NCBI GenBank assembly: GCA_013151835.1
Contig: JAADHK010000058.1
Location: 1-35,954 of the forward strand
Direction of reading: 5' to 3'
DNA: 35,954 bases
Source: Deltaproteobacteria bacterium
GTDB lineage: Bacteria > Desulfobacterota > Desulfobacteria > Desulfobacterales > Desulfosalsimonadaceae
Shown: positions 5,128-32,367 of the stretch, piece after piece
How the letters are laid out: every line of letters starts with the position of its first letter
How positions within the stretch are numbered: the first letter of the stretch is position 1
Translations under genes and position numbers: made by a program
Notes under the pieces: model-generated
What the model saw: only the letters and a program-made list of their open reading frames with translations
Told to the model about the DNA's origin: nothing
Database searches by the model: none

Positions 5128-5204
5128 ACATAATAAGAAAATCATCGGGGCGCAACCGCAATTGCGTTTTATTGTCCGTAACCAGTGGAGCCATAAACCA
5201 TACC

Positions 5205-10208: not shown

Positions 10209-10210
10209 GT

Positions 10211-11585: not shown

Positions 11586-11604
11586 AAAAGCGAGTTGATC
11601 TTTA

Positions 11605-12486: not shown

Positions 12487-12511
12487 AACAAAGAACAAAG
12501 GAGGTATCGAC

Positions 12512-16980: not shown

Positions 16981-18096
16981 ATGGTTTTTGTCTTTTTTAA
17001 AATATTGAAAACTCGCGCATTGGAGTTTCTCCTGATCACCGTGGTCGTCGCAGCGCTCATTGCCGCCATGGCGGCCCAGGCTTCACTGTCCGGTTACTCG
17101 GAAGACCGTGTTCATGATTTCGCCCACAACATCGGCGGGAATATGCTGATCGTCTCCGACCGGACCGATTTGGGCAAATTTTTTGAGATGCGCGCCGACT
17201 ACGCGGGCATGCCGGCGTCTTACGCCGGAAAACTCTTTGATTCTCCGGTCGCAAGTCATATCCGCGTCGTCTACCCGCGTATTTACGGCAAAGGGAAGGT
17301 CAATGGAACGACAATGAGCATCATCGGCGGCGGCATGGTTCAAAGCAATGGCAATGGACTGGATCTGCCGGATGATCATGCGCTGGTCGGACAGGCGGCC
17401 GCGAAACAGATGGGGGTGCGGCAGGGTGATGCCATAACGGTCACCGGCGCCGGAAAAACCGGGACGTTTATGGTGGACCGGGTTCTGGACCGGGCGCCGG
17501 AAGGTATTGATACCGGAATTTTTATTAATCTTGACATGGCCCGGCGGATACTGGGCCGGCCGGACGACATCAGTTCCATGCGGATTGCGGGGTGCTGGTG
17601 CAGTCTCGATATCGATAAACTGGCCGCAGATGTGGAAAAAAATCTGCCCGGCACAAGGGCGCTGACCGTCAAGGGAATGATCAAGGCGCAGAAATCCATG
17701 ATCGAGACCGTCAAATCATATTCATTACTTGTAAATATCGTGGGTTGTCTTTTTATTTCACTAATTGTCGGCCTGTCCATCTATTCCCTGACCCGCCGCC
17801 AGTTGATCGATATTGCCCTGTTTCTGATCGTGGGCGCGCGTCCGTGGATGATCGTGATGATATTCGTCACCATGGCCGCGCTTATCGGGCTTGCGGGCGG
17901 GGCGCTGGGATGGGCGCTGTGCCCTATCCTGATAAAGAAAATCGGGGTTGTGCTCATCGGTGCGTCACTACCCGTTTCAGGCATTGATATTAAAACGGTT
18001 CTGGGATTTGCCACGATGCTTTCGGCCGGGGCCGCGCTGATACCCGCGCTGGTCGCCTCACGACGCAACCCGTCGGACATTTTTGCGAAAGAATAA
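16981..18096 (+). CDS. ABC transporter permease, FtsX/MacB/LolC-like
   Basis: Inner-membrane permease of 371 residues with the MacB/Lol fold: one N-terminal helix (about 15-35), a large periplasmic domain (about 40-245, MacB core-like) and three C-terminal helices ending in the ALVASRRNP signature typical of FtsX domains. Family members do not import but use ATP to move lipoproteins, peptides or envelope factors out of the inner membrane. The order permease-ATPase-permease is the same as LolC-LolD-LolE. The ATPase starts three bases after the stop. Its periplasmic domain contains an unusual CWC pair (GCWCSLDI). Confidence 0.93.
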   Translation: MVFVFFKILKTRALEFLLITVVVAALIAAMAAQASLSGYSEDRVHDFAHNIGGNMLIVSDRTDLGKFFEMRADYAGMPASYAGKLFDSPVASHIRVVYPRIYGKGKVNGTTMSIIGGGMVQSNGNGLDLPDDHALVGQAAAKQMGVRQGDAITVTGAGKTGTFMVDRVLDRAPEGIDTGIFINLDMARRILGRPDDISSMRIAGCWCSLDIDKLAADVEKNLPGTRALTVKGMIKAQKSMIETVKSYSLLVNIVGCLFISLIVGLSIYSLTRRQLIDIALFLIVGARPWMIVMIFVTMAALIGLAGGALGWALCPILIKKIGVVLIGASLPVSGIDIKTVLGFATMLSAGAALIPALVASRRNPSDIFAKE

Positions 18097-18099
18097 AAG

Positions 18100-18795
18100 A
18101 TGCTTCAATTAACGGATGTAAAAAAGGTATTCAGGGGCCGCAACGGCAATCCCGTTGTCGCCATCGATAATGTCAGCCTGCGGATCGATCCGGGAGAATT
18201 TATTGTTATAAACGGCCCGTCCGGAAGCGGCAAAAGCTCCCTGCTCTTCACCATGGGCGGAATGCAGCCCCCGACAACGGGCAATGTGACCTATGATCAC
18301 ATGGATATGTATGCCGTTTCCCCGTCAAAACGGTCCGTCATGCGGAACAAACGGATGGGTTTCGTCTTTCAGACCTTTAACCTGATTTCATATCTTAACA
18401 GCTTGGAGAATGTGGCATTTCCGGCCTTGCTGGCGGGTATTTCCAGAAAAGACGCCTTTAAACGCGCTGAGATGCTGCTCGGGCGGCTCGGACTCGACGA
18501 GCGACTTTTTCACCGGCCCATGGAATTGAGCGTGGGTGAACGGCAGCGGGTGGCTATTTGTCGAAGCCTCGTCAACGCGCCGGATATCCTTCTGGCCGAT
18601 GAGCCTACCGGTAACATGGATCCTGAACTGACCCTGGAAACAATGCGCATTTTTCGCGATATCAATCAACAGGGGCATGCCATTGTAATGGTGACCCATG
18701 ATCCCGAGTTATCAAAAGTCGGTTCCCGCCATATTGTTATTGAAAATGGACTTATCAGCGGGGACCGGATGATTGAAGAGGAGATGGTATTGTGA
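18100..18795 (+). CDS. ABC transporter ATPase, LolD/MacB-like
   Basis: ATP-binding subunit of 231 residues, the normal size for LolD. It shows Walker A GPSGSGKSS, a Q-loop in VFQTFNL, a signature LSVGERQRV (variant of LSGGQ), Walker B ILLADEPTGNMD and the switch His in VTHDPE. It is sandwiched between two FtsX-type permeases; its stop overlaps the GTG start of the second by four bases. The trio should form one mechanotransmission-type exporter acting on periplasmic or outer-leaflet substrates, possibly the lipoproteins encoded downstream (inference). Confidence 0.95.
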   Translation: MLQLTDVKKVFRGRNGNPVVAIDNVSLRIDPGEFIVINGPSGSGKSSLLFTMGGMQPPTTGNVTYDHMDMYAVSPSKRSVMRNKRMGFVFQTFNLISYLNSLENVAFPALLAGISRKDAFKRAEMLLGRLGLDERLFHRPMELSVGERQRVAICRSLVNAPDILLADEPTGNMDPELTLETMRIFRDINQQGHAIVMVTHDPELSKVGSRHIVIENGLISGDRMIEEEMVL

Positions 18796-19922
18796 AAGCC
18801 GCCTTATGGCTGACCGGAAAAGAATTGTACGGGCGGAGAATTTCGCTTATGATCGGTCTTGCCATGTGCGGCCTGATCGTTTCCATGTTCATCTTTGTGG
18901 AATGGTCTCTGATGAGCAGGGAAAGTCGAATCCGCGGGGATATAGATCTGATGGGCCCGCCCATTATCGTCGTTCCCCCGGGCAGATCAATGACCGACCT
19001 GAGACGTTTTGACCTGGGTTCCGTATATTTTGACGCGAGCTCCTTTGTTTCGCCTCTGGTTGATGAGTTGTCCACGTATGTCCGGGCTGTGGATTCGCGT
19101 CTGTCCATCCGGATGCCGGTTTCAGGCCGGATGCCGGTTTCGGGAAAAGAGCGACCCGTTATCGGTATCGACCCGACAAGCGTGGTCACACCCTACGATC
19201 AATTGCAGGATCTGGGAAAAAATCAGGTGGCTATCGGGAAGTTACTTGCGGACAGGTTGGGATTGCGGACGGGCGATGTCGTCCGGATAGCGGGGTCCGC
19301 CTTGTCCGTTAACGCGGTTTTGTCCTCGGCCGGAGACGCGACGGACATGGCGGTATTCATGAACATTTCTGTTTTGCGTCGACTTTCGGGTTTGAAAGAC
19401 GCGGTTAATGAAATCCGGATTTTCCCGAAAAACGACACGGATATGGACCCGATCCGCAAAAAACTGGCGGCGCGGGGAGACACTCTGCGCACAATCAGCA
19501 TAGACCGGGGAGATATTGCTGAAAACCGGATCACGCAAACCCTTTCGAGCCATCGGTATGCGATATATCTGTCGCTGGGCGCAATCCTGTCTCTGGCGAT
19601 GATGATCTGGACTTACCTGGATACCCGGGAAAGAGGTGTCGAACTTGCGACAGTGGCCGCCCTCGGCGGATCGTCGACAACCATCATAGGGCTTCTGATC
19701 AGCCGCTCGACAATTGTCGGGGCTGCCGGCGCTCTGATAGGCGCGGGTTTCAGCCTGAGCGTTAAATGGTTTACGGACGGCGCCTTTCCGGTGGATATCA
19801 TGGAGTTGGCCGGCCTTTTGGGGGTCTCGATGTGCGGGGCTGTTTTTTTCAGCATGGCCGGAGCCATGCCGGTTGCCATGAATCTTTCCTGGCAAAACCA
19901 CGTGGCATTGTTGCAGAATTGA
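18792..19922 (+). CDS. ABC transporter permease, FtsX/LolE-like (GTG start)
   Basis: Second permease of 376 residues with one N-terminal helix (about 20-40), a periplasmic domain and three C-terminal helices beginning near YAIYLSLGAILSLAMM. It starts with GTG inside the GTGA overlap with the ATPase gene. Its periplasmic domain carries an exact six-residue duplication, RMPVSG-RMPVSG, produced by an 18-base tandem repeat at 19110-19145. Together with the two upstream genes it completes a heteromeric Lol/MacB-like exporter. Confidence 0.93.
   Translation: MKAALWLTGKELYGRRISLMIGLAMCGLIVSMFIFVEWSLMSRESRIRGDIDLMGPPIIVVPPGRSMTDLRRFDLGSVYFDASSFVSPLVDELSTYVRAVDSRLSIRMPVSGRMPVSGKERPVIGIDPTSVVTPYDQLQDLGKNQVAIGKLLADRLGLRTGDVVRIAGSALSVNAVLSSAGDATDMAVFMNISVLRRLSGLKDAVNEIRIFPKNDTDMDPIRKKLAARGDTLRTISIDRGDIAENRITQTLSSHRYAIYLSLGAILSLAMMIWTYLDTRERGVELATVAALGGSSTTIIGLLISRSTIVGAAGALIGAGFSLSVKWFTDGAFPVDIMELAGLLGVSMCGAVFFSMAGAMPVAMNLSWQNHVALLQN
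19110..19145 (+). repeat. 18-bp tandem duplication inside the permease gene
   Basis: Two adjacent units beginning CGGATGCCGGTTTC encode RMPVSG twice. The repeat stays in frame and looks like a recent slippage event or a functional loop extension. Confidence 0.8.
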
Positions 19923-19991: not shown

Positions 19992-20492
19992 ATGAAAGGT
20001 AATTTCAGATGGGTTTTCACCTGCATTATGATTGCCCTGTTTTTTTTCACCGGCTGCGCGGCCTTAAAAAAACCTGCCCCGCCCACCTGTGCCCAGGTTC
20101 TGAGGGGGGAGCCGGCGGCCCTTGGGGATGAGGAAATCTCGAAAGTCCTTGATGGAGCCGTCCTGGAAAACAGGATAGACGAGTGCTGGACCCCGCTTGT
20201 CAAGCAATTGCTTGACCGTAACCGAGCGATCCCCATGCGGCATCTGGTCCGAGCGATCCGGCGATTCAATACGGTCGGGACAATTGCTTGGTTTCACAAG
20301 GCGGTTTATCGCTATTTTTCGGAAATGATAGTAACCGGCAAAGCCTATCGACCCGAGGACCGGAGGCTTTTGTCCGCCTACTCCCGTTTTGTTATCCGGG
20401 AGGCTGCGAGCAAATCCGATCCAAACCTGAAAAACGCCGAACAGATTTGCCTGCGGCTGGATCAGGATCTCTTTAACAGATTATTTCATTAG
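19992..20492 (+). CDS. Lipoprotein of unknown function
   Basis: Predicted lipoprotein of 166 residues with a type II signal peptide and lipobox (IALFFFTGC, Cys at about residue 22). Residue +2 is Ala, so outer-membrane sorting is plausible. The mature domain is mostly helical and of unknown family (DRNRAIPMRHLVRAIRRF). The start at 19992 has GGAG ten bases upstream; the longer frame from 19926 has no site and would bury the signal. It lies 69 bases after the ABC permease and 18 before the next gene, so it belongs to the same run. Confidence 0.8.
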   Translation: MKGNFRWVFTCIMIALFFFTGCAALKKPAPPTCAQVLRGEPAALGDEEISKVLDGAVLENRIDECWTPLVKQLLDRNRAIPMRHLVRAIRRFNTVGTIAWFHKAVYRYFSEMIVTGKAYRPEDRRLLSAYSRFVIREAASKSDPNLKNAEQICLRLDQDLFNRLFH

Positions 20493-20510
20493 ATATAACA
20501 GGAGGCGAGC

Positions 20511-21575
20511 ATGAACGATTCATTCAGGGCGCCGATAATAGTCCGGATAGTGTTGCTGGCGCTGCTTATGCCGGCCGGGACGTCCTCATACGCCTCGACC
20601 GCCGATGACTACGGCAGCGCGGACCGGGCCGTTGTAATCGCGAAGCAGGCCAGGGCAAAGGTTGAACAAAGCGGGAAGCTGCTCCAGTCCACATCAAAAG
20701 AAATGTTCACCGAGTTTGCGCGGGCCACGGGCGAGCTTCAGAAACTCATCGATACCAGAAACCAGCTCGAGCAGGCCGGCCTGCTGTCAAAGGATGATCC
20801 GGACGGCCTCGCAAGGCGGGCGAATCTCAATGCCAGGATTCTGCTTGAAGTCGGCACCCTTAAAAAAGTATGTGACAAAAATATCGACAACCTTTTGTTG
20901 TCGCTCGATTCATTTGACCGGTCCGTTGCGGATTCACTGGTGGACACCCAGGCTACGCGATCCTTGAACAGCAATTATGAACTGGCATTGAACCGCTACA
21001 TCACACAGGAGAAAAAAGCCTTTGTCATAGCGGCCGCAAGCGCTCAAAAGGCTCTTGAAAGTTACCGGTCGGCGGCTGATCCCATGGAAAAAAACCGTCT
21101 TAAAAAAAAATACATGCGTCTCAAGAAGCGCCTGCAACTGACGGAACAGCGGCGCAGGATTTATGAATCAAGGATCAAGGTAGCTGAAATGAATCAGAAA
21201 ATGACCGGCGTGATCCGGGATAAAATCCGCCGGGACGGCGGTGACGTTCCCGAAAGGTTCCGCAAGGTCATGACGGAATTGTATACCCTTTTCTCCAAGA
21301 TCGTGCCCGTGGCCGAGGCCGGGGTAACCGGCATGCCGGACGCCATGGCCGACATGGGATTTGATAACATGACAAAGCTCAATGAAACACTTGAGATCGT
21401 TGAGGATTCCACGGCCAAGTTAAACAGCGTCCTCGACGACATGGTCGGCGATGTTCTGGCCGGTCTCGGAGACATTCAGGTTGTGGACGACGGCTCCCTT
21501 ACGGGAAAGGCCCTCAGCGTGGAAGACGAAATGGAGTATCTGAACCGGCAGCGCATGAGCTGGAACCGGGAATAG
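20511..21575 (+). CDS. Periplasmic coiled-coil protein
   Basis: Predicted secreted protein of 354 residues. The signal peptide (IIVRIVLLALLMPAGTSSYA) is followed by almost entirely helical sequence, with heptad-like Leu/Ala patterns and a very basic stretch (NRLKKKYMRLKKRLQLTEQRRR, about 197-218). No catalytic motif is visible. A good AGGAGG site precedes the ATG. It could be a periplasmic strut or a TolA/YbgF-like coiled coil for the Exb-like genes downstream; that assignment rests on context only. Confidence 0.82.
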   Translation: MNDSFRAPIIVRIVLLALLMPAGTSSYASTADDYGSADRAVVIAKQARAKVEQSGKLLQSTSKEMFTEFARATGELQKLIDTRNQLEQAGLLSKDDPDGLARRANLNARILLEVGTLKKVCDKNIDNLLLSLDSFDRSVADSLVDTQATRSLNSNYELALNRYITQEKKAFVIAAASAQKALESYRSAADPMEKNRLKKKYMRLKKRLQLTEQRRRIYESRIKVAEMNQKMTGVIRDKIRRDGGDVPERFRKVMTELYTLFSKIVPVAEAGVTGMPDAMADMGFDNMTKLNETLEIVEDSTAKLNSVLDDMVGDVLAGLGDIQVVDDGSLTGKALSVEDEMEYLNRQRMSWNRE

Positions 21576-21587
21576 GGAGGCATTTAA

Positions 21588-22289
21588 ATGATTCAATTGA
21601 GACGATACCTCACTGGAATCGTTATTTCCGGCTTACTGATGGCGTTCCCCGCGTCCCCGGTTTCCGCCGGATCACTGTTTGAACAATACGCAAACAAGAC
21701 CGCCGCAGGGCTTGATGCCGAAACCGCCGACATGGGAAAACAAATCCGGGAGGTGTTCACCGAGCGGTCCATCAATGGCTATCAGCGGAAAATTGATTTT
21801 GCCGATTACTTCGCCAACTTCAAGAAAATAATCCTGTACGGAGCGAAACTCGCCAACTACGGTGAATACAAAACCGACCTGCTCTTTGCAAGGGACAAGG
21901 AAATCTTTATGGACCTGCCGGACGCGCCAAAGGGCGACAAGGCCGAACAGGCCGATTACGCTGATAAAAAATATGAAGAAATAAAGAAAAATGTAAAAGA
22001 GGAGATCGATACCTATGTCGATCTCATCGGCATATCACTCGATGCCTGTGAGATAATGGCGAACAACGACCTGAGCGGTTTTACGGCCAACGAGGAAAAC
22101 CGGAACCGCATCCGGACATATCTTTTGGAAAGCGAGGCTTATCGAAAATTTTCATCCCGCGTCGACCGGCTCAAAAAGGGATGGCCGGATATTGAACGTC
22201 GTATTTCGCTCCAGGTGAAGCAATGGACGCCGGCGCCGAAAAATCCGGATGATCCATTGATCGATACGGCCATAACCGGAGCCCTGTAG
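21588..22289 (+). CDS. Periplasmic protein of unknown function
   Basis: Secreted protein of 233 residues with a clear signal peptide (GIVISGLLMAFPASPVSA). The mature part is charged and helical, with no family motif I recognise. GGGAGG precedes the ATG at 21588. The gene starts 12 bases after the coiled-coil gene and ends two bases before the TonB-like gene, so it is part of the same translation-coupled operon and probably of the same envelope complex. Confidence 0.8.
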   Translation: MIQLRRYLTGIVISGLLMAFPASPVSAGSLFEQYANKTAAGLDAETADMGKQIREVFTERSINGYQRKIDFADYFANFKKIILYGAKLANYGEYKTDLLFARDKEIFMDLPDAPKGDKAEQADYADKKYEEIKKNVKEEIDTYVDLIGISLDACEIMANNDLSGFTANEENRNRIRTYLLESEAYRKFSSRVDRLKKGWPDIERRISLQVKQWTPAPKNPDDPLIDTAITGAL

Positions 22290-22291
22290 CC

Positions 22292-23362
22292 ATGCGTCGA
22301 TTCCTGACTCATGCGGACGGACGCCTGAAATCGGGACGGATTGCCTTTCTTTTGTTTGTGGGGCTTATTGTCTGTTTTTCACTTGCCTACCGGTTCGCCA
22401 GGCCCGTGGACAGGGTCATGGTGGCGGTGACGCACATGTTTAACGCACAGCCTGTGAAAACCGCGCCCGAGGCGGCCCGGCCTCAAGAGAAACCTGCAAA
22501 ACCCGTGGAGGCGAAACCTGCGGCTCCCGAACTCCGGCAGGAAAGATCCGGTCCACCCGTGGAAAATAAGCCGGCAAAGCGGGAATCCGGTGAACAAGCC
22601 GTGCCCCGGACCGGCGAATCATTGGATAAGGGAAAAATGGATAAGGGAAAAAACAGATCCCGCCCGGCGTCCGCAAAAAAGCCCGCCAATATCACGACGG
22701 CCCCGGCAGCCCCGCCCGGAACGGTCCTGTCCGAGAAGGAAAAAACGGATGAAGGGGTTTCACTGACACTTGAAGGCAAGGCGTATGAATCGATTTACAG
22801 GCAATGGCGGGAGGCTGGCGGCAACAATAGGGGCGCGCTTTCGCTACGCATCGAAAACCTGAGGGAAGTATATCCGCTGTTGCAGATGAAAGCCGTGGCA
22901 ACGCTCAATGGAAAGCCCTATGTGGATCTTTCCGACGGGTCGCGGGTGGCCGAAGGCGCGCTTGAATCATATTCCAGCACCCGGTTTCTGGTGAGCGACC
23001 CGTTTGAGAAATGGCCGGATGCCCTGGCGCGGGCGGGCCTGGTTCCGTCAATGCGGGTCGAGGTCTGGTATTACACCTATGACTTTATCCGCAACGCCAT
23101 TTACGGCCGGGCATGGCAGGCCATTGATTGCGCAATCCAGGGTGGATTGATCCCTGCGGAAACGGACCCGGCTTCCATGGACCTGCTCGGCCGGGCCTAT
23201 GCCGTTAAAAGAAAGGGCGGCGGCGGTTTCGCCGTTTTCGTGCCGATCCGGGTGGACCTGCCCGGAGACCTGCCCGGAGGCCGGACAGTCCGCATTGATC
23301 CGTCCTGTTTTGCGGGAAACGGGGACGTGGCGGCGCTGATTGCTGCGGGCATTCTCAGGTAG
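22292..23362 (+). CDS. TonB/TolA-like membrane-anchored protein with Pro/Lys-rich linker
   Basis: Protein of 356 residues with the topology of an energy-transducing arm. It has a short basic cytoplasmic N-terminus, one membrane helix (IAFLLFVGLIVCFSLAY, about 17-34) and a long Pro/Ala/Lys/Glu linker (about 50-150; EKPAKPVEAKPAAPE). A folded C-terminal domain (about 155-356) follows, with RVEVWYYTYDF and a putative LysM- or TonB-sized tail. The C-domain does not show a recognisable TonB YP motif, so this is an analogy of layout, not proven homology. Its neighbours are ExbB- and ExbD-like genes, which strengthens the reading. It starts two bases after the previous stop. Confidence 0.78.
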   Translation: MRRFLTHADGRLKSGRIAFLLFVGLIVCFSLAYRFARPVDRVMVAVTHMFNAQPVKTAPEAARPQEKPAKPVEAKPAAPELRQERSGPPVENKPAKRESGEQAVPRTGESLDKGKMDKGKNRSRPASAKKPANITTAPAAPPGTVLSEKEKTDEGVSLTLEGKAYESIYRQWREAGGNNRGALSLRIENLREVYPLLQMKAVATLNGKPYVDLSDGSRVAEGALESYSSTRFLVSDPFEKWPDALARAGLVPSMRVEVWYYTYDFIRNAIYGRAWQAIDCAIQGGLIPAETDPASMDLLGRAYAVKRKGGGGFAVFVPIRVDLPGDLPGGRTVRIDPSCFAGNGDVAALIAAGILR

Positions 23363-23371
23363 GGGGTCCGG

Positions 23372-23995
23372 ATGGGGTTTCTCAAATGGTTTTTACAAAA
23401 TTTCGGCATGTTTTTCGGCGGTCTTTTCCTTGTTTATATTTATATGATACTCAGACGTTTAACCGTTCTATATGATTTTTTGCGACATGTTCAGGCCGGA
23501 GAGGAGCAGACAAGAATGCCCGTCGGCCGGGACCCCGCGCTGGCTTTTCTTTCGCCCTTCTTCGACAGGCTGCGGACGGCGAAGGGCGGATCGCCTGCGG
23601 TCGAGGCCGTCATAGACGCGATATGGTCTGAAGTCGACTGCCGCATATCAGTTCATTTTACCGCGATAAACGGTTATATCAACACGCTGGTGCTTGTTGG
23701 TTTCGCCGGGACTATTTTTGGGTCTATCGGCGCTTTTAATGAGATGTTTCAGGGTCTTGCAAAGGGCAGGGCCGCGTCCCGGGTATTTATCGATTCATGG
23801 AACCTGGGGCTTTCCACCGCCCTTTATACATCCCTGGGCGCTGCGGCCATCGGCGGGTTTGCGGTTACACTCCTGTATTCACGTTTTTTAATGACCCGGG
23901 CAAAACGCCTTGAAACCATGATCGGCCTGAGGATCGTTGAAGTGCTTGAAAAGGGTGATACATGTCAAGAAGAAAACAACGAAGCGGTTTCGTGA
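23372..23995 (+). CDS. MotA/TolQ/ExbB-family proton-channel subunit
   Basis: Inner-membrane protein of 207 residues with three helices in the ExbB pattern. TM1 lies near the N-terminus (about 10-28), followed by a cytoplasmic loop (about 30-105). TM2 is in INTLVLVGFAGTIFGSIGAF and TM3 in ALYTSLGAAAIGGFAVTLLY. The TM2-TM3 motifs match the GLLGTVxGM...TAxG signature of the family in looser form. Family function: a pentameric stator that with its ExbD/TolR partner converts proton flow into motion across the periplasm. It begins nine bases after the TonB-like gene and overlaps the ExbD-like gene by 34 bases. Confidence 0.88.
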   Translation: MGFLKWFLQNFGMFFGGLFLVYIYMILRRLTVLYDFLRHVQAGEEQTRMPVGRDPALAFLSPFFDRLRTAKGGSPAVEAVIDAIWSEVDCRISVHFTAINGYINTLVLVGFAGTIFGSIGAFNEMFQGLAKGRAASRVFIDSWNLGLSTALYTSLGAAAIGGFAVTLLYSRFLMTRAKRLETMIGLRIVEVLEKGDTCQEENNEAVS

Positions 23996-24438
23996 CGCAA
24001 GGCGCCGCCGACCCCGGGAAGGATCTGTTTGCTTATCTTTTCCTGATGATCATGGTCTTTTGTTTCATGCTGCTGATGTCCGCGTCCGAGGTCACCAGGT
24101 CCATGAGCGGTCAACAATCGCCTGAAACAAGAAAGGCCGCGTCCGGTTCAACCCTGATCTCGGTATCCGTTGAAAATATCGGACGGCTGGTCCAAAAAGA
24201 CGGCGCCGTATATCTGATGTTCGGTAATGTCCTTTACAGCCCCGTCACGGATATCGGACGTCTGACAACCGACGGGCGCGTGGAGAAAACGACCGGCAAA
24301 AACGGTGAAAATAAAAGGGTGTTGTATATCGAGGCAAACAGCAGCGGGCGGGTTCTTTTGAGCGAGTATCTTTCGGCCTTTGAGGCCCTGAACCAACAGG
24401 GGATCAGTGTGGCCTTTGCCGAGCGGGTCCATGAATAG
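23962..24438 (+). CDS. ExbD/TolR-like proton-channel partner
   Basis: Protein of 158 residues with a basic N-terminus, one membrane helix and a periplasmic domain. Asp21 stands at the head of the helix (GKDLFAYLFLMIMVFCF), where ExbD, TolR and MotB place their essential proton-carrying Asp. The C-terminal part (VLYIEANSSGRVLLSEYLSA...) matches the shape of the ExbD/TolR periplasmic fold. It overlaps the ExbB-like gene by 34 bases and the transglycosylase gene by eight, so all three are co-translated. AAGGGTG precedes the ATG. Confidence 0.82.
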   Translation: MSRRKQRSGFVTQGAADPGKDLFAYLFLMIMVFCFMLLMSASEVTRSMSGQQSPETRKAASGSTLISVSVENIGRLVQKDGAVYLMFGNVLYSPVTDIGRLTTDGRVEKTTGKNGENKRVLYIEANSSGRVLLSEYLSAFEALNQQGISVAFAERVHE

Positions 24439-25207
24439 CCGGGCCGGGCCGGGCTGCCGGGTCGCGCTGCTGCTGGCCTGGGCGCTGTTGATTGCCTCGC
24501 ATTCGGCGGCAATGGCCGATGATGACCCGTGGCGGATGCTTCGGGACGCATTTCACGCAAAGCCCGGGACCACCGGGCCGGTTGCCGGGGAAAAGAACAA
24601 AAAAGACCCGTGGGCCAGGCTTCGGGCGATTTATCTCCCGTTTAACGAAAAAGACGAGGCTGCGGCCCAGACCGATAAAAATGCCCGGAAAAGGGTTGCC
24701 GGAAAAATTAATGGGACCCTGGCTCCATTTGCAGCGCTCATCAAAGATGCTTCCAATTTGTTTAATGTGCCGGAGGCGATTATTTCCGCGCTGATTATGG
24801 TGGAATCAGGCGGCGATCCGGATGCCAGAGCGTCGACAAGCTCGGCGGCCGGCCTGATGCAGACCATCTCATCCACGTTTAAGGCGGCCCGGAAATCACT
24901 TGGTGCCAAGGGAATCATCATAAGCGCATCCCCCGTGAATCCGCGTTCCTCCATCATGGCCGGGACCTGGTATCTGGACCGGATGTATGCCAGGGCCGTT
25001 TCGGACCGACGGATCGAGGCCGAAATGCGGCGGGTTCTTTCATCCTGGAAGAAACCGCTGGAATATTACTATGCCGGCCCGGTTCATGGCGCAAAACGCT
25101 CGGACACGGTTATCATCTATGCCGGCGGCCGGAAAGTGGTCGTTGATAAGCGAGCGTATTCAACAAAAGTCCTCAAGTGGGCGAAAATTTTACGGAAGAC
25201 CGTATAA
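24431..25207 (+). CDS. Lytic transglycosylase (SLT domain)
   Basis: Periplasmic murein-cleaving enzyme of 258 residues. After a signal peptide (VALLLAWALLIASHSAAMA), a basic spacer leads to the SLT/goose-lysozyme-like domain (about 95-250). It has the catalytic Glu in ALIMVESGG, the GLMQT motif and an EYYYAGPVHG stretch late in the domain. The start at 24431 overlaps the ExbD-like stop by eight bases; the frame back to 24407 lacks a site. Its coupling to ExbB/ExbD/TonB-like genes suggests that it opens the peptidoglycan for the machine. Confidence 0.9.
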   Translation: MNSRAGPGCRVALLLAWALLIASHSAAMADDDPWRMLRDAFHAKPGTTGPVAGEKNKKDPWARLRAIYLPFNEKDEAAAQTDKNARKRVAGKINGTLAPFAALIKDASNLFNVPEAIISALIMVESGGDPDARASTSSAAGLMQTISSTFKAARKSLGAKGIIISASPVNPRSSIMAGTWYLDRMYARAVSDRRIEAEMRRVLSSWKKPLEYYYAGPVHGAKRSDTVIIYAGGRKVVVDKRAYSTKVLKWAKILRKTV

Positions 25208-25247
25208 TGATAAAGATTAATCATTTAATAATAAAAGAGGTACGATC

Positions 25248-26762
25248 ATGAAAACAAAACATTTTTGCTGGTGGATTCCCGTCCTCGTGCTGTCACTTTT
25301 TCTGGCCGGCTGTCACAAGGCCGGGCCTGAACCGATAATCGACCAGGGTCTTAAAAACAAATTTGACAATGCCATCGGCAGGACCATCGACACCATTATC
25401 GGAAAGGAAAAGCTTTCTGCGGTCGCATTATCGCCGGTTGCGGTTTTCCCGGGAGCGCTGAAATCCGGCGGTGTCTATACCCGGCTGGAGGAAGTGATCA
25501 TGGAACGGCTATCCCGCCGTTTGTCGAAAAATCATGAAGTAATCCGGCTTTCACGCGAGAACTGGTTCGAATACAGGGAAGGCCGGCCATTGAGCGCCGG
25601 GGTCCACGGTGGATACGATCCATCCATAATTAAAAATCTATTGCTCTACAGAGTCAACGTTTCCGCAGACAGCATTCTTGAGGAGCTGAGGATAAGTATC
25701 GCCGGGTATCGCGCCGACGGCCGGATAATCAACGGTCTGTCGGCCGGAACGACCCTTGACTTCCGTCCCGGCCGGGTCGCACGGATATTGTACGAGACCC
25801 CGGCCCAGGCCAATCCCTTCCCCATAGGGATGGAGGAAAACCCCTATGCGTCCGTTGACCGACTTTGTTTCAGCCTGGCATCCGAGCTTACGGATGCCTA
25901 CCGGACGGGGATAACCGCCGGGAACCGCCATGTGGGAGATGAGGAAATAAAGGTTCTGCTGTATCTCAATCCCATCGGCGGCGTCGCCCCCCGGACCGTC
26001 GCCGCCATTGGCAGCGGCCTTCAGCAGGCCATTGTCGCAGATCGCGGATTTACCTGCGTTATCAGCCAGGCGGATTTCGGCCCGGCATTTAAACAGATAG
26101 ATTTTTACAAGAAGAATTTTTCGACTTTTTCGATTGAAGACCCGAAATTTCTTGCCGGCACCGTCCTTCTCATGGCGGATGTTTTTCCGCATCCATCCGG
26201 CCGTAAAACCGGCATCGCCCTCCGCGCCATATGGCGCGTAAGTCCGCTGTCCGATAAAAACGGTGCGTTTGTGCCCGATGAGACCGCCGGAACGTATATT
26301 TCTGGCTTTACCGCCAGGGCGTACCTGAGCGGCGGCGTTTTCACGGGCGCGTCGCCCGGCGTGAACTCCGGTGCATCCCTTAAAACAGCAGGCGCGCCGT
26401 CATCGGGAAACAGTGTGCGGGTGTGGTTTTATCATGTGCCGAAAAATCGCATGGCGACCGTGGAAGCCGCGCTACGCACCGCTGCGGGCGTTGAATTGGT
26501 CGCCATTGATACGGCCCTGTGTGAAGACGCCCGAACCTGCATGGCCTATGAAATCCAATGCCGATGCTCCGCGTTCGACCTGGCCTGGACGCTTGAAAAA
26601 TCATTTGCCGGAATAAAAGGCCTGATCCTCGACCGAATGGCCCCGGAATCTGATACGACACTCAGGATCTATTTCCGTGGCGTTGATGACGAACATGAAT
26701 CAAACAGCGGGGAGGGCAACGATTGGCCGGAAAGGAGAAAGTCATCTATGGGCGGGTGTTGA
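25248..26762 (+). CDS. Large lipoprotein, possibly with a FlgO/CsgG-like domain
   Basis: Predicted lipoprotein of 504 residues with a lipobox LFLAGC (Cys about residue 25). The following segment (AVALSPVAVFPGALK...RLEEVIMERLSRRLSKNHEVI) resembles the start of FlgO/CsgG-like folds, a weak call. The rest is unassigned. AGAGG precedes the ATG at 25248, 40 bases after the transglycosylase. The last nine residues (RRKSSMGGC) look unlike the body, and the gene ends 14 bases before a broken kinase fragment, so the 3' end may have been altered when the accessory region was joined here. Confidence 0.82.
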   Translation: MKTKHFCWWIPVLVLSLFLAGCHKAGPEPIIDQGLKNKFDNAIGRTIDTIIGKEKLSAVALSPVAVFPGALKSGGVYTRLEEVIMERLSRRLSKNHEVIRLSRENWFEYREGRPLSAGVHGGYDPSIIKNLLLYRVNVSADSILEELRISIAGYRADGRIINGLSAGTTLDFRPGRVARILYETPAQANPFPIGMEENPYASVDRLCFSLASELTDAYRTGITAGNRHVGDEEIKVLLYLNPIGGVAPRTVAAIGSGLQQAIVADRGFTCVISQADFGPAFKQIDFYKKNFSTFSIEDPKFLAGTVLLMADVFPHPSGRKTGIALRAIWRVSPLSDKNGAFVPDETAGTYISGFTARAYLSGGVFTGASPGVNSGASLKTAGAPSSGNSVRVWFYHVPKNRMATVEAALRTAAGVELVAIDTALCEDARTCMAYEIQCRCSAFDLAWTLEKSFAGIKGLILDRMAPESDTTLRIYFRGVDDEHESNSGEGNDWPERRKSSMGGC

Positions 26763-26776
26763 AAGGTTTTATGGAC

Positions 26777-26941
26777 CCATTGTCTGGAGATGATCTTAAT
26801 CGCCACGTCCCGGTTCAGATTAACCTGATGCGCCCGGTAAACCTCACCCATGCCCCCCCCCCTGGCGATAGATTCGAGTATGATTCATTTAACGCCGAGG
26901 ATCGTTACAATGGTAATCAGATTTGTGTTTGAACTGTTCAT
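26777..26941 (-). pseudogene. 5' fragment of a Ser/Thr kinase gene (duplicate of the 32367 gene start)
   Basis: The first ~55 codons of the kinase at 30574-32367 are repeated here, including MNSSN, GGMGEVYRAHQVNL and VAIKIISRQW. The copy is dead: a TGG codon has become TGA (codon 19 region), a C-run is three bases longer, and similarity stops right after RQW. It lies just beyond the lipoprotein stop and marks one edge of a 5.4-kb segment bounded by direct repeats. Confidence 0.9.
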
Positions 26942-26973
26942 CTGCGATCTTTCTCTGCGCCATAAAAAGATTA

Positions 26974-26994
26974 GCCGGGATTTAGGGTCCCGGC
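26974..26994 (-). terminator. Intrinsic terminator after the copper ATPase
   Basis: On the minus strand the stem is GCCGGGA/TCCCGGC with a 7-base loop, followed by AATCTTTTTA. It is the repeat-copy twin of the hairpin at 32400-32420. Confidence 0.72.
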
Positions 26995-27076
26995 ATATGA
27001 AATTTTTATTTCAGTAGTTTTCATTTTAAAGCACACCTTGGCGAATCGTCAAGGCTGAGTCCTCCATATTCGCATT

Positions 27077-29509
27077 TCACAATTTCACCCCTTTTAGTCT
27101 GAGCGCGTTTGTGATCACGGAAACAGAGCTGAAGCTCATTGCGGCCGCTGCTATGATCGGCGACAGCAGTATTCCGAAAAATGGGTATAGAATCCCTGCG
27201 GCAATGGGAACACCCGCCGAGTTGTAGATAAATGCAAAAAACAGGTTCTGCCTGATATTTCGCATGACGGCCCGGCTCAGGCGGCGGGCCCGTACGATTC
27301 CGCTCAAGTCGCCCTTTACCAGGGTGACGCCGGCACTTTCCATTGCCACATCTGTCCCCGTGCCCATGGCGATGCCGACCTGTGCCTGGGCCAGCGCGGG
27401 AGCATCGTTGATGCCGTCTCCGGCCATGGCAACAATGTGCCCTTTTGCCTGAAGATCTTTAACGACCAAGGCCTTTTGTTCGGGCAATACCTCCGCCCGG
27501 ACATCATCGATTCCCAGTTTGCCGGCAACTGCTTTCGCTGTGGCCCGGCTGTCACCTGTAAGCATTATGACCTGAATGCCCTCGGCGTGCAAATCACGGA
27601 TGGCTGCCGGTGTTGACTCTTTTATGGGATCAGCAACACCGATAAGTCCGGCGGCCTTGCCGTCGATCCCGACCAGCATGACGGTTTTACCTTCGGCACG
27701 CTCTCTGTCGGCCTTATCCGGAAGGTCTGCGGAGTTTATACCCAGGCTTTCAAACAGCTTAAGGTTGCCCACCGCCACCTTATGACCGTCGACTGTGCCC
27801 GTGACACCCTTGCCTGTAACGGATTGAAAAGCATCCGGCTTGACCGGCGTAATTCCCTTGTCTTCGGCTCCGCGTACAATGGCTTCCGCCAGGGGATGCT
27901 CGCTGGCGCGCTCAAGGCTTGCGGTCAGGCGTAATACTTCTTCTTCGGTAAAACTATTTTCCACCTCTACTGCAACCAGTTTCGGTTTGCCTTCGGTCAG
28001 TGTGCCGGTCTTGTCCACCACCAGGGTATCGACCTTTTCCATGATCTCCAGCGCTTCCGCGTTCTTGATTAAAACACCGGCAGTGGCGCCGCGCCCGGTG
28101 CCGACCATGATGGAAATGGGTGTGGCAAGTCCCAGGGCGCACGGGCATGCGATGATGAGCACCGCAACGGCATTGATGACCGCATGGGCCAGGCGGGGTT
28201 CGGGACCCCAGAGCCACCAGACAATAAATGCGAGAACCGCCAAACCCACCACTGCGGGAACAAAGTAGCCGGCCACCATATCGGCCAATTTTTGAATCGG
28301 CGCCCGTGAGCGTTGCGCCTCGGCCACCATGTTAACGATCCTGGCAAGCAACGTGTCGGCCCCGACCTTTTCCGCCCGCATCAATAAGCTGCCGGTTCCG
28401 TTGACCGTGGCGCCGATCAGTTTTTCATTTTCTTTCTTTGTTACAGAGAGAGGTTCACCGGTGACCATGGATTCATCCACGTTACTCTCCCCATCGATGA
28501 CAATGCCGTCCACGGGTATTTTTTCACCGGGTCGAACTCGAAGGGTATCACCGGGTTGCACCTGTTCCAGCGAAATATCCTCTTCCGTCCCATCATTCCG
28601 CACGATGCGGGCCGTATTCGGCGACAGTCCGAGCAGCATCTGGATGGCCGCGTTGGTTCGTGAACGGGCACGCAGTTCAAGCACCTGTCCCAGCAACACC
28701 AGCGCCGTAATCACGGCAGCCGCTTCAAAGTAAACATCAACCAGGCCCCCTTCCATCTGCATAATGGCCGGAAAAACCTGTGGGAAAAGAAGAGCGACCA
28801 TACTGTATACCCAGGCCACCGAGACCCCCAGTGAAATCAGGGTAAACATGTTGAGATTCCAGGTCCGGATGGACTGCCATCCTCTTACAAAAAACGGCCA
28901 GCCGCCCCACAGCACCACGGGGGTTGCCAGTACGAACTCGATCCACTGGATCATTTGCATGGAAAGGCCGGCCGGCAGCCATGACGGCGCAAGGTCGGCC
29001 GTCATGGCCAGAATGAAAAGGGGCAAGGCAAGGATCGCGCTGACCCGGAAACGGCGTGTCATGTTGATGAGTTCTTCATCCTTTTCCTCGACACTCACCA
29101 TAACCGGTTCAAGCGCCATGCCGCATTTAGAGCAGCTACCCGGATGGTCCTGTCTTATTTCAGGATGCATGGGGCAGGTATACTCTGTCTTTGCGACGGT
29201 TTCCGGTATGCCCGCGCTTTCCAGGGCCATGCCGCATTTTGGGCAACTACCCGGATGGTCCTGCCTGATTTCGGGATGCATGGGGCAGGTATATACGCCC
29301 GGCCGGGCACTTTTTTCCGGCAATGACGGCATTGGTTTTGCGGCCACATACAGGTCCGGGTTTTCCTTGAATCTGTTCAGGCAATGCCCCCCGCAAAAAT
29401 AATAATCCGTTCCCGCATGACGGTGATGATGTTCGGAATCCGCCGACACCGCCATGTTGCAGACAGGATCCCTTAACTGTTCTTTTTGCGTATTTGACTG
29501 TCTGTTCAT
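27077..29509 (-). CDS. copA: Cu(I)-translocating P1B-type ATPase with YHS and two HMBD domains
   Basis: Copper-exporting ATPase of 810 residues. A YHS domain (about 12-55; [17 protein letters not shown]) is followed by two near-identical heavy-metal-binding repeats ([17 protein letters not shown] and a Cys/Met variant, about 73-135). The membrane and catalytic core shows the actuator TGEP, the CPC metal channel (ACPCALG), the phosphorylation site DKTGTLT, the SEHP motif and [13 protein letters not shown]. Late helices carry YN and MSFSS, the Cu(I)-type (CopA) signature. The two HMBD units are also a direct DNA duplication (29108-29300). AAGGAG lies nine bases before the ATG at 29509. I see no sigma-54 site upstream. 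Confidence 0.96.
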
Positions 29510-29700: not shown

Positions 29701-30072
29701 TCAGAGTTTATCAATAAGACAATTTTCTGCGGTTGCATCCAGATATCCATAGAATATCTCCGGTGACAGGGTGGCATGCGAGAGGGCTGCGCAATCTTTT
29801 GCATCAATTTTACCCTTTACATTTGTTTTCAGAACGCTTGTTTTATCCGTTGTTACGCCGTAGAAAAAATCGGCGTTTGATAAATCAGCGGCAATGATCG
29901 ATGCACCGCTGTTTCCAGTCCTGTCAACGTGCAAAGCCTGTCCATTGTCGATGGTCACGCCGTAGAAGAAGTCGGAAGAACTAATTGCGTCAACTCCGCC
30001 TCCCGCCAGTGCGCTGCCTGCAAATACCGCGAAACAGATTACAATGATGGCTGTGATAATCGCTTTATTCAT
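29701..30072 (-). CDS. Small secreted DFFYG-repeat protein (copy 2)
   Basis: Secreted protein of 123 residues, paralogous to the one at 15513-15860. The signal peptide (AIITAIIVICFAVFAGSALA) is followed by three motifs, ISSSDFFYGVT, LSNADFFYGVT and LSPEIFYGYLD. The ninth-last-type tail carries two Cys (KDCAAL, ENCLID) that copy 1 lacks. The ATG at 30072 is preceded by the same AAAGGAGGTGA site as copy 1, and the longer frame to 30132 has none. It has its own sigma-54-type promoter and a strong terminator, so it is a single-gene unit between the copper ATPase and the kinase. Function unknown. Confidence 0.85.
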   Translation of the reverse strand: MNKAIITAIIVICFAVFAGSALAGGGVDAISSSDFFYGVTIDNGQALHVDRTGNSGASIIAADLSNADFFYGVTTDKTSVLKTNVKGKIDAKDCAALSHATLSPEIFYGYLDATAENCLIDKL

Positions 30073-30573
30073 GAAGCTCACCTCCTTTCCTGTGGATACT
30101 GTTAGTTGAACCTTTGGTAATAATATATGCATTTATAGTGCCAGCACAACAAGAAGACGGAAAACAAGGCGGGCGGGGGATAAGCTCCGGGGGTTGAAAC
30201 CGGCGCGCATATTCTGCGCGGTTGTGTGTGTTTTTTTTACGCATACTGTTTTATAATTTTAATCGCCGGACACCATGGATACTGAACCGGTCAGGTTTTA
30301 TCATGCGGAAACCGGAACTCCGGCATATAGTCTGCTGAAAGCCCGTAAGCATCGTTTAAGTATCCTGTCTGGCGGCCTTGATAACGGGCATATCATACCA
30401 GGCGTTTAATTATTGATGCACTCGTAAAAAGTCAGACAACCCGGTAAAGATGGCTAAGTAGAAAGTTTCATATACAAGGCGTAGTGGTGCCGCGAAAGCG
30501 GAGGCATACATATAGTATTCCGAGCATTTCACGACCCGCTACAACGCAGTAGATGGGACTTTTTACGACGCCA
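30073..30573. other. Intergenic stretch: DFFYG leader and MITE
   Basis: This gap of about 500 bases holds the sigma-54-type promoter at 30128-30143, roughly 260 bases in which I see no gene or clear structure, and the MITE-like element from 30408 onward. Confidence 0.6.
30128..30143 (-). promoter_or_regulatory. Sigma-54-type promoter of DFFYG copy 2
   Basis: On the minus strand: TGGCACT-ATAA-ATGCA. The -24 half is perfect; the -12 half keeps GC but starts with A. It lies 56 bases before the ATG at 30072, close to the spacing seen for copy 1. Confidence 0.6.
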
Positions 30574-30582
30574 TCAATTATT
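30408..30582. mobile_element. MITE-like element, complete copy
   Basis: A ~175-bp element without an ORF, bounded by imperfect ~26-bp inverted repeats (AATTATTGATGCACTCG... and, on the other strand, AATAATTGATGGCGTCG...), both continuing into GTAAAAAGTC. Its interior matches the sequence at the right end of the window. The right terminal repeat supplies the last codons and stop of the kinase gene. Confidence 0.85.
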
Positions 30583-32367
30583 AATTGCGGCTGCATCAAT
30601 CACGCATCTGAATCCGACCTCTTCAAAAGATTCCCAGGGCTGGCGATTTATTATGGAATATCCGGCGGGATTTTTCTCTTTTTGCCAGGAATTTCCAGCT
30701 ATGGAGTAAACCATGCTTTTATTGGTTTTCATGGATGAAGAAGCAGTCCATTCATTTATGCACTGGTTCAAGCCCCTGATGCCTAATCTGTTGGGGGTTA
30801 ACAGGATGACCGGTGTTGGGAGCGGTTTTTGCTCGCACGATCCCCGTGGCGCGGGATTCAAACTTGCCCTTGCGCCCTGATACGCATAAATCCATTCAAT
30901 CTCCGTGGGCAATCGTTCCCCGTAAAACCGGGCATACGCCAATGCGCCGAATGCGGTTACCCTGAGGACCGGACAAGCGGTATGACCGGGATGTTTTACA
31001 GTAAACTCATCGTTTTTATAGATAATTGGCTCGTAGCCGGGAGAGACTTCACCGAGCATCAGCCATATTTTTTTGTCTCCAATCACGGCATTGTTTTTTA
31101 CGACGAGCCTGTTTTTGATTTTATTCAGAAAAGAAACATATTGCAGGTTGGTAACCGGTGTTTCGTCCATGTAAAAGGCTTTTACATCAATCCGGCGGCC
31201 TTTGTGAAGCAAGAGTGTTCCGGCCGGCACATAATGAAAAGTGGAGTTGTCTTTTGTGTAAACTGGTTTTTTTAAATTTACAAAAGCAGGGGCAGTCGCT
31301 GTAATGGGCTTGTCTGCGGTCAAGGAAACTTTTTGAGCGGGTAAGCCGGGAGATTTACCGGGGTTGCCCAGCAGATGCCAGACAGTCATCATGAGAACCG
31401 ACAGCAGTGCTATGAAAATTCCCGTCCATATCCATTTGGGATGTTCATGAAAAGTCCACATGCTCTTTCCGTCCGGCCGCTGTTCGGAAATGGCGAGTGT
31501 CTTTAAAATTGCGCTGCGGAACTCTTCAATAGATTTGAACCGGTTGTTTTTATTTTCCGCTGTCGCCCGCCGGATAATTTGGTCTATTTCATTGAAAAAT
31601 ACGGTTTCAGGTTTTTCCAGGCCCACGCATTTGAAAAAGCTGGGGTCCGAGACCGTGCTTATTTTACCGGTTACGGCCTCATACAGAATTTTTCCCAGGG
31701 AATAGATATCAGCCCAGTGATCCGTACGCCTGAAGTCGGCAAGCTGCTCGGGAGACATGTACATGAGCGTGCCCTTGATATCCACCGACTGGGTCACGCC
31801 TTTCCACCGGCAGGAGCGGGACAGGCCGAAATCGGCGATTTTCGGTATACTGCCGTCAAGTAAAATGTTTTCCGGCTTCAGGTCCCTGTGAACTATGTCC
31901 TTTTTATGGATCGCTTCAACGCCGTTGAGAGTTGGCAGAAAATATTTTTCAACCCATTCACGGGTCAGGCCCTCTTCGGGGAAGAAGCCCTCTTCGGACA
32001 TTGTTTCGCGGAGCGTGTCGCCGGGAATAAACTCCATTGCGATATAATGAAGTGGTTTCCCCCCTTTTTTGCCATTGATCGTTTCAAGGTCATAGTCAAA
32101 AATCTGCAATACATTTGGATGATTGATACCGGCCATTGCCTGGACTTCTCTTTGAAACCGCTGCAATGTGGTTTCAACTTCGTCATCCGCCTCAATACTT
32201 TCAATCCATTGCCTGGAGATGATCTTAATCGCCACGTCCCGGTTCAGATTAACCTGATGCGCCCGGTAAACCTCACCCATGCCCCCCCTGGCGATAAATT
32301 CGAGTATGATCCATTTGCCGCCGAGGATCGTTCCAATGGTAATCAGATTTGCGTTTGAGCTGTTCAT
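30574..32367 (-). CDS. Ser/Thr protein kinase fused to a formylglycine-generating-enzyme-like (FGE-sulfatase) domain
   Basis: Membrane-anchored kinase of 597 residues. The kinase domain (about 12-290) has a glycine loop (GGMGEVYRA), the Lys of VAIKII, HRDLKPEN, DFG, MSPEQ and DIYSLG, so it should be active. One membrane helix (about 315-335; IWTGIFIALLSVLMMTVW) leads to an extracytoplasmic FGE/C-type-lectin-like domain (about 360-590) with MDETPVTNLQYVSF, RLPTEIEW, INEWTASS and GFRCV. Such fusions are known in Desulfobacterota and Planctomycetes; the outer domain probably senses a ligand. The start at 32367 is shared with the broken copy at 26941. The stop codon lies inside the terminal repeat of the MITE, so the C-terminus (INN) is element-derived. 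Confidence 0.92.
   Translation of the reverse strand: MNSSNANLITIGTILGGKWIILEFIARGGMGEVYRAHQVNLNRDVAIKIISRQWIESIEADDEVETTLQRFQREVQAMAGINHPNVLQIFDYDLETINGKKGGKPLHYIAMEFIPGDTLRETMSEEGFFPEEGLTREWVEKYFLPTLNGVEAIHKKDIVHRDLKPENILLDGSIPKIADFGLSRSCRWKGVTQSVDIKGTLMYMSPEQLADFRRTDHWADIYSLGKILYEAVTGKISTVSDPSFFKCVGLEKPETVFFNEIDQIIRRATAENKNNRFKSIEEFRSAILKTLAISEQRPDGKSMWTFHEHPKWIWTGIFIALLSVLMMTVWHLLGNPGKSPGLPAQKVSLTADKPITATAPAFVNLKKPVYTKDNSTFHYVPAGTLLLHKGRRIDVKAFYMDETPVTNLQYVSFLNKIKNRLVVKNNAVIGDKKIWLMLGEVSPGYEPIIYKNDEFTVKHPGHTACPVLRVTAFGALAYARFYGERLPTEIEWIYAYQGARASLNPAPRGSCEQKPLPTPVILLTPNRLGIRGLNQCINEWTASSSMKTNKSMVYSIAGNSWQKEKNPAGYSIINRQPWESFEEVGFRCVIDAAAINN

What the first reader, a model, noticed from the sequence alone, without database searches (positions are those of the whole stretch)
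20511..26762. Exb/Ton-like proton-driven machine with its own transglycosylase
In tight order come a coiled-coil protein, a periplasmic protein, a TonB-layout protein, ExbB/TolQ-like, ExbD/TolR-like (with the expected Asp at the membrane helix), a lytic transglycosylase and a large lipoprotein. Overlaps of 34 and 8 bases tie the stator and the murein enzyme together. This is neither Tol-Pal (no Pal or TolB), nor standard TonB uptake (no receptor), nor Zorya. It may power secretion, matrix export or envelope remodelling across the wall.
Basis: partly seen in the sequence, partly recalled or inferred. Interest (0 to 1): 0.78.

Follow-up and report, generated by a model that had tools for sequence, protein, structure and literature searches.

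The report
New proton-driven envelope machine gene cluster
A tightly linked set of genes, kept in the same order in scattered related bacteria, looks like an extra kind of proton-powered machine, beside the known Ton and Tol-Pal machines, that reaches across the cell wall and brings its own wall-cutting enzyme; what it pulls on or moves is not yet known.

Summary
Window 19992-26762 carries g0 (lipoprotein), A and B (predicted exported), C (TonB layout), D (ExbB/TolQ family), E (ExbD/TolR-like), F (SLT lytic transglycosylase) and G (lipoprotein). All 11 loci that hold the whole set on one stretch keep the order g0-A-B-C-D-E-F; 7 more are cut short and fit it. A and E occur in the same 9 of 395 genomes sampled across the phylum. 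The genome also has tol-pal-like and exbBD-tonB-like loci, so this is an extra system. E keeps the membrane Asp in 10 of 10, but PF02472 does not match it. C lacks the SHLS motif (0 of 12); its confidently modelled C-domain has no significant PDB match; a strand-like segment after its helix resembles the TonB D-box. In 13 of 18 loci a sigma-factor gene lies nearby, not in the window. Best reading: a PMF-driven trans-envelope force transducer with its own murein enzyme; assembly and output are inferred, the target unknown. New variant of a known kind.

The parts
19992..20492 (+). g0: short lipoprotein (predicted; FTGCA, Cys22), first gene of the conserved cassette
   Evidence: found directly before A in the 16 of 18 loci that reach it (the other two, L005 and L026, start inside the cassette); Cys22 invariant in 12 of 12; a simple lipobox pattern matched 10 of 12
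20511..21575 (+). A: predicted exported protein, probably helical/coiled coil (by eye), the most specific marker of the cassette
   Evidence: 36-58% identical to 13 relatives; no significant Pfam, NCBIfam or PADLOC match
21588..22289 (+). B: predicted exported protein of unknown family
   Evidence: 30-49% identical to 11 relatives; no significant family match
22292..23362 (+). C: force-transducer-like protein: N-terminal membrane helix (residues 17-35), Pro/Ala/Lys-rich linker, globular C-domain
22421..22441 (+). C residues 44-50 (VAVTHMF): conserved strand-like segment just after the membrane helix, at the place of the TonB D-box / motor box
   Evidence: pattern present in 12 of 12 N-termini; D-box described in PMC10907165 (passages)
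22733..23359 (+). C residues 148-356: C-terminal domain, confident model without significant PDB match
   Evidence: AlphaFold2 pLDDT 90.7, pTM 0.85; Foldseek best E 0.39, VIA-align best Z 3.5
23372..23995 (+). D: ExbB/TolQ-type subunit, three hydrophobic segments; Thr114 (23711-23713) and Thr153 (23828-23830)
   Evidence: MotA_ExbB listed for 10 of 10 members at E <= 1; hhalign to a TolQ/ExbB alignment E 1.1e-5; Thr in 10 of 10
23962..24438 (+). E: ExbD/TolR-like subunit; invariant DPGKDLFAYLF with Asp21 (24022-24024) at the start of the single membrane helix
   Evidence: invariant in 10 of 10; the three best VIA-align rows are ExbD, Z 4.6-5.0; no PF02472 match
24431..25207 (+). F: predicted exported SLT-family lytic transglycosylase, Glu125 (24803-24805), two DPWxxLR motifs (24524-24544, 24605-24625)
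   Evidence: Pfam SLT 1.3e-14; motifs in 10 of 10 with a tolerant pattern; best solved-structure matches EmtA and MltC
25248..26762 (+). G: large lipoprotein (predicted; LAGCH), accessory gene of the cassette
   Evidence: found in 6 of 18 loci; no Pfam match at E <= 0.5

Best explanation
[quoted passage not shown] Inferred working: D forms the pentameric channel and two E helices sit in it; protons passing at Asp21 of E against Thr114/Thr153 of D turn or move E. The periplasmic domains of E catch C through the strand-like segment at residues 44-50, as ExbD catches the TonB D-box. C spans the periplasm with its Pro/Ala/Lys-rich linker, and its own C-domain acts on a partner at the outer membrane, most likely the lipoprotein g0 (with G where present), with A and B as periplasmic scaffold or adaptor. 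F opens the peptidoglycan locally so that the machine can pass or so that wall and outer membrane are remodelled together. Shown: gene set, order, co-occurrence, family of D and F, conserved residues, predicted membrane and export signals. Inferred: assembly, proton flow, C-E contact, partner, output. My preferred output is envelope remodelling or outer-membrane anchoring, in many carriers switched by the neighbouring sigma factor; that step alone I hold at about 0.35.
For: Order g0-A-B-C-D-E-F in each of 11 whole loci; F present in 12 of 12 loci that have E. A and E found in the same nine genomes of 395. D: MotA_ExbB in 10 of 10, hhalign score 42.3 against at most 19.7 in 20 column shuffles. 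E: single membrane helix with invariant Asp; of the rows shown by VIA-align the three best are ExbD. C: helix, linker, globular domain, post-helix motif in 12 of 12. F: SLT domain, Glu125 in 10 of 10. g0: Cys22 invariant in 12 of 12. Separate tol-pal-like and ton-like loci in the same genome.
Against: E is not recognised by the ExbD family model (0 of 10 members at E <= 5) and hhalign to ExbD/TolR is not significant (E 0.13; sub-domain runs E 0.04-0.68). The E model is only moderate (pLDDT 72.9), Foldseek gave nothing below E 0.23, and a VIA-align Z near 5 is within what unrelated models can reach by that tool's own note. C lacks the SHLS motif by which TonB and TolA bind their motors (0 of 12), so the contact with the motor may be different or absent. 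The D-box-like pattern does not follow the published hydrophobic/hydrophilic spacing exactly. No outer-membrane partner is identified and no complex was modelled.
Confidence: 0.6

Rival explanations
1. A diverged Tol-Pal-like system: it anchors or constricts the outer membrane, with g0/G or an OmpA-family partner taking the place of Pal.
For: OmpA-family protein near the cassette in L067 (Pfam 5.5e-22) and, by eye, in L005 and L006 (in L006 on the other strand); lipoproteins in the cassette.
Against: No TolB, Pal or CpoB in the cassette (no such Pfam match); a tolQRA-tolB-pal-cpoB-like set exists elsewhere in the genome (names by eye); C lacks SHLS. No OmpA-like gene was noticed by eye next to the cassette in the window or the f114 loci; no family search for it was run there.
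Confidence: 0.2
2. An export machine: the motor pulls or pushes cargo or a filament through the envelope and F clears the wall, as specialised transglycosylases do for secretion systems.
For: A transglycosylase gene in 12 of 12 loci that have E; the G homologue in L024 carries FlgO/CsgG-like regions.
Against: The CsgG-like part of L024's G lies outside the part that aligns with the window's G; no conserved outer-membrane pore or cargo gene was recognised by eye among the neighbours.
Confidence: 0.12
3. A regulated self-damage or defence device (Zorya-like): D/E leak protons while F and a neighbouring caspase damage the cell on a trigger.
For: Caspase-domain gene in 5 of 18 loci (four of these five gave the profile) and a sigma/zinc-finger/Lon-domain trio.
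Against: No PADLOC model matches (0 of 8 proteins at E <= 0.01); two caspases (L006, L007) have lipobox-like N-termini and others look exported (by eye), hence outside the cytoplasm; no match of D on plasmids or of A on phages or plasmids; no caspase found in the window with those queries.
Confidence: 0.05

Closest known systems
Ton system (ExbB-ExbD-TonB)
   Same: D is of the ExbB/TolQ family; E has the one-helix layout with membrane Asp, and its model points weakly to the ExbD periplasmic fold; C has helix, Pro-rich linker and C-domain plus a D-box-like segment
   Different: No SHLS motif, no TonB_C match, its own transglycosylase, lipoprotein and two further proteins; the genome has a separate exbB-exbD-tonB-like locus
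Tol-Pal
   Same: Multi-gene motor cassette with periplasmic and lipoprotein partners
   Different: No tolB/pal/cpoB in the cassette; such a set lies elsewhere in the genome
AglRQS-Glt gliding machinery and its wider 'core complex' (PMC3169522, passages)
   Same: PMF motor with trans-envelope partners, found in deltaproteobacteria
   Different: There AglQ and AglS both match PF02472 and GltG has a TonB-like proline-rich motif (paper); here one E-profile hit per locus without PF02472 match, and a transglycosylase in the set
vWA force transducers next to tolQR-like genes (PMC12204202, section 8 read)
   Same: The same idea: TonB layout with a non-TonB C-domain beside a motor
   Different: Many of those keep SHLS, others insert a helix of their own in the motor, and their C-domain is vWA; C has no SHLS, and no vWA match was seen by Pfam or by fold search (fold search inconclusive)
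Lytic transglycosylases EmtA/MltE, MltC, Slt70
   Same: SLT domain with the Glu kept
   Different: Own N-terminal part with two DPWxxLR motifs; encoded inside a motor cassette

Membership tests
MotA/TolQ/ExbB channel family (D) | Profile match | tested here: met
   MotA_ExbB in 10 of 10 members at E <= 1, best 8.3e-6; the window protein itself only 0.012, under Pfam's cut-off; hhalign E 1.1e-5
MotA/TolQ/ExbB channel family (D) | Three membrane helices with channel Thr residues | tested here: met
   three hydrophobic segments; Thr114 and Thr153 in 10 of 10; that these are the channel Thr rests on the alignment and on recall
ExbD/TolR (E) | PF02472 match | tested here: not met
   not listed at E <= 5 for any of 10 members; hhalign to 15 ExbD/TolR sequences E 0.13
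ExbD/TolR (E) | Single N-terminal membrane helix with Asp | tested here: met
ExbD/TolR (E) | ExbD-type periplasmic fold | tested here: inconclusive
   three best VIA-align rows are ExbD, Z 5.0, 4.8, 4.6, next unrelated row 4.0; Foldseek best E 0.23
TonB/TolA (C) | SHLS motif in the membrane helix | tested here: not met
   SxxxH in 0 of 12 N-termini (L005 lacks its N-terminus and was left out)
TonB/TolA (C) | TonB_C-type domain by sequence | tested here: not met
   no Pfam match at E <= 1 for the window protein; relatives not scanned
TonB/TolA (C) | TonB/TolA C-domain fold | tested here: inconclusive
   Foldseek best E 0.39, VIA-align best Z 3.5
Tol-Pal | tolB, pal, cpoB in the operon | tested here: not met
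   no such Pfam match among the cassette proteins; the genome's tol-pal-like set lies on another contig (names by eye)
Zorya | PADLOC Zorya proteins | tested here: not met
   0 of 8 cassette proteins match any PADLOC model at E <= 0.01
vWA force transducers | vWA C-domain | tested here: inconclusive
   no Pfam match for the window protein, no structural match
AglRQS | Two ExbD-type (PF02472) proteins beside AglR | tested here: not met
   one E-profile hit per whole locus and no PF02472 match of E; PF02472 was searched in the window's genome, where its two hits lie on other contigs, not in the relatives' loci

The most novel reading that the evidence does not exclude
This is a further class of PMF-driven periplasmic force transducer, separate from Ton, Tol-Pal, Agl-Glt and the vWA transducers: a new output domain of a fold not yet seen in solved structures is coupled through a D-box-like strand, without SHLS, to a strongly diverged ExbBD-type motor, carries its own peptidoglycan-cutting enzyme, and in most carriers is switched by a dedicated sigma factor with a zinc-finger protein and a Lon-domain protein.
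Probability: 0.45. Interest if true: 0.75.

Novelty: new variant of a known kind. Interest (0 to 1): 0.62.

Why it matters
Only a few outputs of the ExbB/TolQ/MotA motors are known. A cassette in which the motor comes with its own wall-cutting enzyme and an output domain not recognised as TonB makes two open questions testable: whether the post-helix strand contact is enough to couple a transducer to the motor without the SHLS contact, and how such a transducer gets past the sacculus. Pfam misses E and scores the window's D below its cut-off, so annotation pipelines may overlook the system (inference).

Tried and rejected
Considered and rejected: TonB-dependent uptake (C lacks SHLS and a TonB_C match; separate ton-like locus); Tol-Pal; Zorya; a phage or plasmid system (no match of D on plasmids, nor of A on phages or plasmids; no match of a 201-base piece of D in E. 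coli genomes); matrix export from the window's upstream genes (no match beside 16 other cassettes; L026 was not searched for them; the window's response regulator matched one in L070, taken as generic). PHROGs gave one weak match for A (phrog_15749, unknown function, 3.3e-4), read as coiled-coil similarity; likewise PDB matches of A to a spike fragment (5.7e-5) and others.

Led nowhere: profile searches of solved structures for g0, B, C, D, E and G gave nothing usable. The first search with C alone listed 4 of 195 genomes, but two of those (G107, G177) are short partial matches in frames with stops and were dropped. Structure searches of the C-domain found no significant match in PDB or in viral models. 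TonB, TolA and vWA chains do not appear in those lists, which does not exclude them. Local and global hhalign of E's C-domain against ExbD/TolR gave no significance, although the full-length alignment puts Asp21 on the TolR Asp. That ExbD/TolR alignment has 15 sequences: of 30 loci my motif filter found an ORF in 15 and left 15 out. Promoter- and terminator-like sites in the region (10 and 17, against 6.0 and 11.9 in shuffles) were not informative. Trees of the D-E-F rows, D and A keep the f114 loci together (support 1.0 in the joined tree) but differ in other branches; no test of transfer was made. Other phyla were not reached. Literature searches with no paper describing the cassette; one search listed the motor-evolution papers cited.
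Full report
What is there. One more gene belongs at the front: g0, a small predicted lipoprotein (ATG 19992, stop 20492). The cassette is therefore g0-A-B-C-D-E-F, with G as a follower in some loci.

Conservation. A genome-contig scan with D found three relatives (L005-L007). Profile searches with A found matches in 9 of 395 genomes drawn across the phylum, 9 of 16 genomes of one family, f114, 1 of 17 in the class of G478 and 6 of 389 in the window's order. The C-domain profile was found in 5 of 388 genomes of the class of G683. The samples overlap, and each count includes the genome at its centre. I scanned 18 loci with profiles of all parts. The profiles were built from rows that include many of these loci, so those match by construction; most had been identified before by single-sequence BLAST with the window proteins. 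Eleven loci hold all seven genes on one stretch (window, L006, L007, L017, L018, L019, L020, L022, L024, L067, L068), and each has the order g0-A-B-C-D-E-F; L024 has a caspase gene between E and F. The other seven (L005, L021, L023, L026, L063, L070, L071) are cut short and fit the order. With G762, a 3-kb contig with B and C, that makes 18 carriers, as far as contig lengths can tell duplicates. Two are single-contig genomes (G654, G683).

Co-occurrence. Searching the phylum sample separately with A and with E gave the same nine handles out of 395 (G000, G239, G331, G357, G478, G483, G502, G519, G536). Seven of the nine sit in one family (f114), so these are not nine independent events.

An additional system. 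In the window's genome, the ExbD and MotA_ExbB family searches find two other motors. One lies with tolA-, tolB-, pal- and cpoB-like genes (L031), the other with a tonB-like gene (L032); these names are by eye from translations. Both of those transducers show S-x-x-x-H in the membrane helix by eye; C does not. The family searches did not report D or E of the cassette.

D. Pfam lists MotA_ExbB for 10 of 10 members, best 8.3e-6, but the window copy scores 0.012, under Pfam's cut-off. hhalign against a TolQ/ExbB alignment from relatives gives E 1.1e-5 and score 42.3, against a best of 19.7 in 20 column-shuffled controls. Thr114 and Thr153 are in 10 of 10.

E. One membrane helix preceded by the invariant DPGKD; Asp17 and Asp21 in 10 of 10. 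PF02472 is not listed for any member, hhalign is not significant, Foldseek gave nothing below E 0.23. The AlphaFold2 model is moderate (pLDDT 72.9). In the VIA-align second look at 1000 chains the three best rows are ExbD periplasmic domains (8vgd Z 5.0, rmsd 2.9, 70 aligned; 8pek 4.8, 3.9, 85; 8p9r 4.6, 3.2, 72), with TolR 5by4 at rank 29, Z 3.1. The margin over the first unrelated row (4.0) is about 1, and the tool warns that Z under 8 may mean only a common arrangement; so this supports but does not prove the family.

C. Membrane helix at residues 17-35; linker 56-150 rich in Pro, Ala and Lys; the whole protein is 462-538 residues in the f114 loci with a complete C, against 356 in the window. 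The pattern aliphatic-x-aliphatic-polar-His-aliphatic-Phe directly after the helix is in 12 of 12 N-termini; SxxxH in the helix in 0 of 12 (L005 is cut and was left out). TonB's D-box lies at the same place and binds the ExbD dimer by strand recruitment (PMC10907165, passages); 'motor box' is the name in PMC12204202 (passages). The published spacing is not matched exactly. The C-domain model is confident (pLDDT 90.7, pTM 0.85); its best PDB Foldseek match has E 0.39 and its best VIA-align row Z 3.5. I call the fold unmatched, not proven new.

F. SLT domain, best solved-structure matches EmtA and MltC; Glu125, GLMQT and YYY(A/S)GP in 10 of 10, and two DPWxxLR-type motifs before the domain in 10 of 10 with a tolerant pattern, possibly docking motifs.

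Regulation in relatives. A sigma-70-type gene lies within the fetched upstream flank of g0 in 13 of 18 loci, with a zinc-finger-like gene (9 of 18) and a Lon-domain gene (8 of 18), on the opposite strand to the cassette (profiles from L006 and L022, which match by construction; the sigma and Lon names from Pfam on L006, the zinc finger by eye). L024 has a fused zinc-finger/Lon gene (Lon_C by Pfam) and a different sigma-like gene (by eye). The window has none of the three in 36 kb, and in its genome (97.6% complete) the Lon-gene profile finds only two long frames of 837-844 residues, taken as ordinary Lon. Caspase-domain genes accompany 5 of 18 loci and DUF4384 genes 6 of 18 (four of the five and two of the six gave the profiles).

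Literature. PMC12204202 (abstract, passages and section 8 read) describes vWA force transducers and says that more PMF-driven systems remain to be discovered. PMC12505986 and PMC9389320 were searched for passages; the word transglycosylase is in none of the three. I found no description of this cassette in the searches listed under Tried and rejected, in an open-licence library only.

Verdict. A real, conserved gene cassette, undescribed as far as those searches show, that most likely builds a proton-driven trans-envelope machine with its own murein enzyme. The kind is known; motor, transducer domain and gene set are a new variant. The output is unknown.

Noticed in passing
window 26777-27079 and 32206-32504: Direct repeat of about 300 bases (82-99% identical in three pieces), spaced 5.4 kb, flanking a P-type ATPase gene (by eye); the second copy holds the start of the kinase gene at 30574-32367, so the first, just after G, is a fragment of it.
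   Followed up: partly
window 30574-32367 (-): Protein kinase domain fused to an FGE-sulfatase domain; FGE domains also occur near cassettes in relatives (L067 fused to a caspase by Pfam; L007, L024, L063 by eye).
   Followed up: partly
L006 281-2361, L022 13726-16539, and L007, L020, L023, L068, L070, L071: Sigma factor, zinc-finger-like protein and Lon-domain protein as a three-gene unit beside the cassette; in L024 the last two look fused. Possibly a sigma switch based on proteolysis.
   Followed up: partly
window 5172-13690: Genes resembling an exopolysaccharide locus: DUF2334 plus glycosyl-hydrolase-like protein, weak NfrA_C match under cut-off (2.4e-4), glycosyltransferase and UDP-GlcNAc 2-epimerase-like genes (by eye).
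   Followed up: partly
window 16981-19922: ABC transporter with two LolCE/MacB-like permeases directly upstream of the cassette; no match to it beside the 16 other cassettes searched.
   Followed up: partly
window 24524-24625: F carries two DPWxxLR motifs before the SLT domain, kept in 10 of 10 sequences with a tolerant pattern.
   Followed up: partly
window 29701-30132 (-): Small, probably exported protein with repeated SDFFYGV-like motifs (repeat seen, motif by eye).
   Followed up: no
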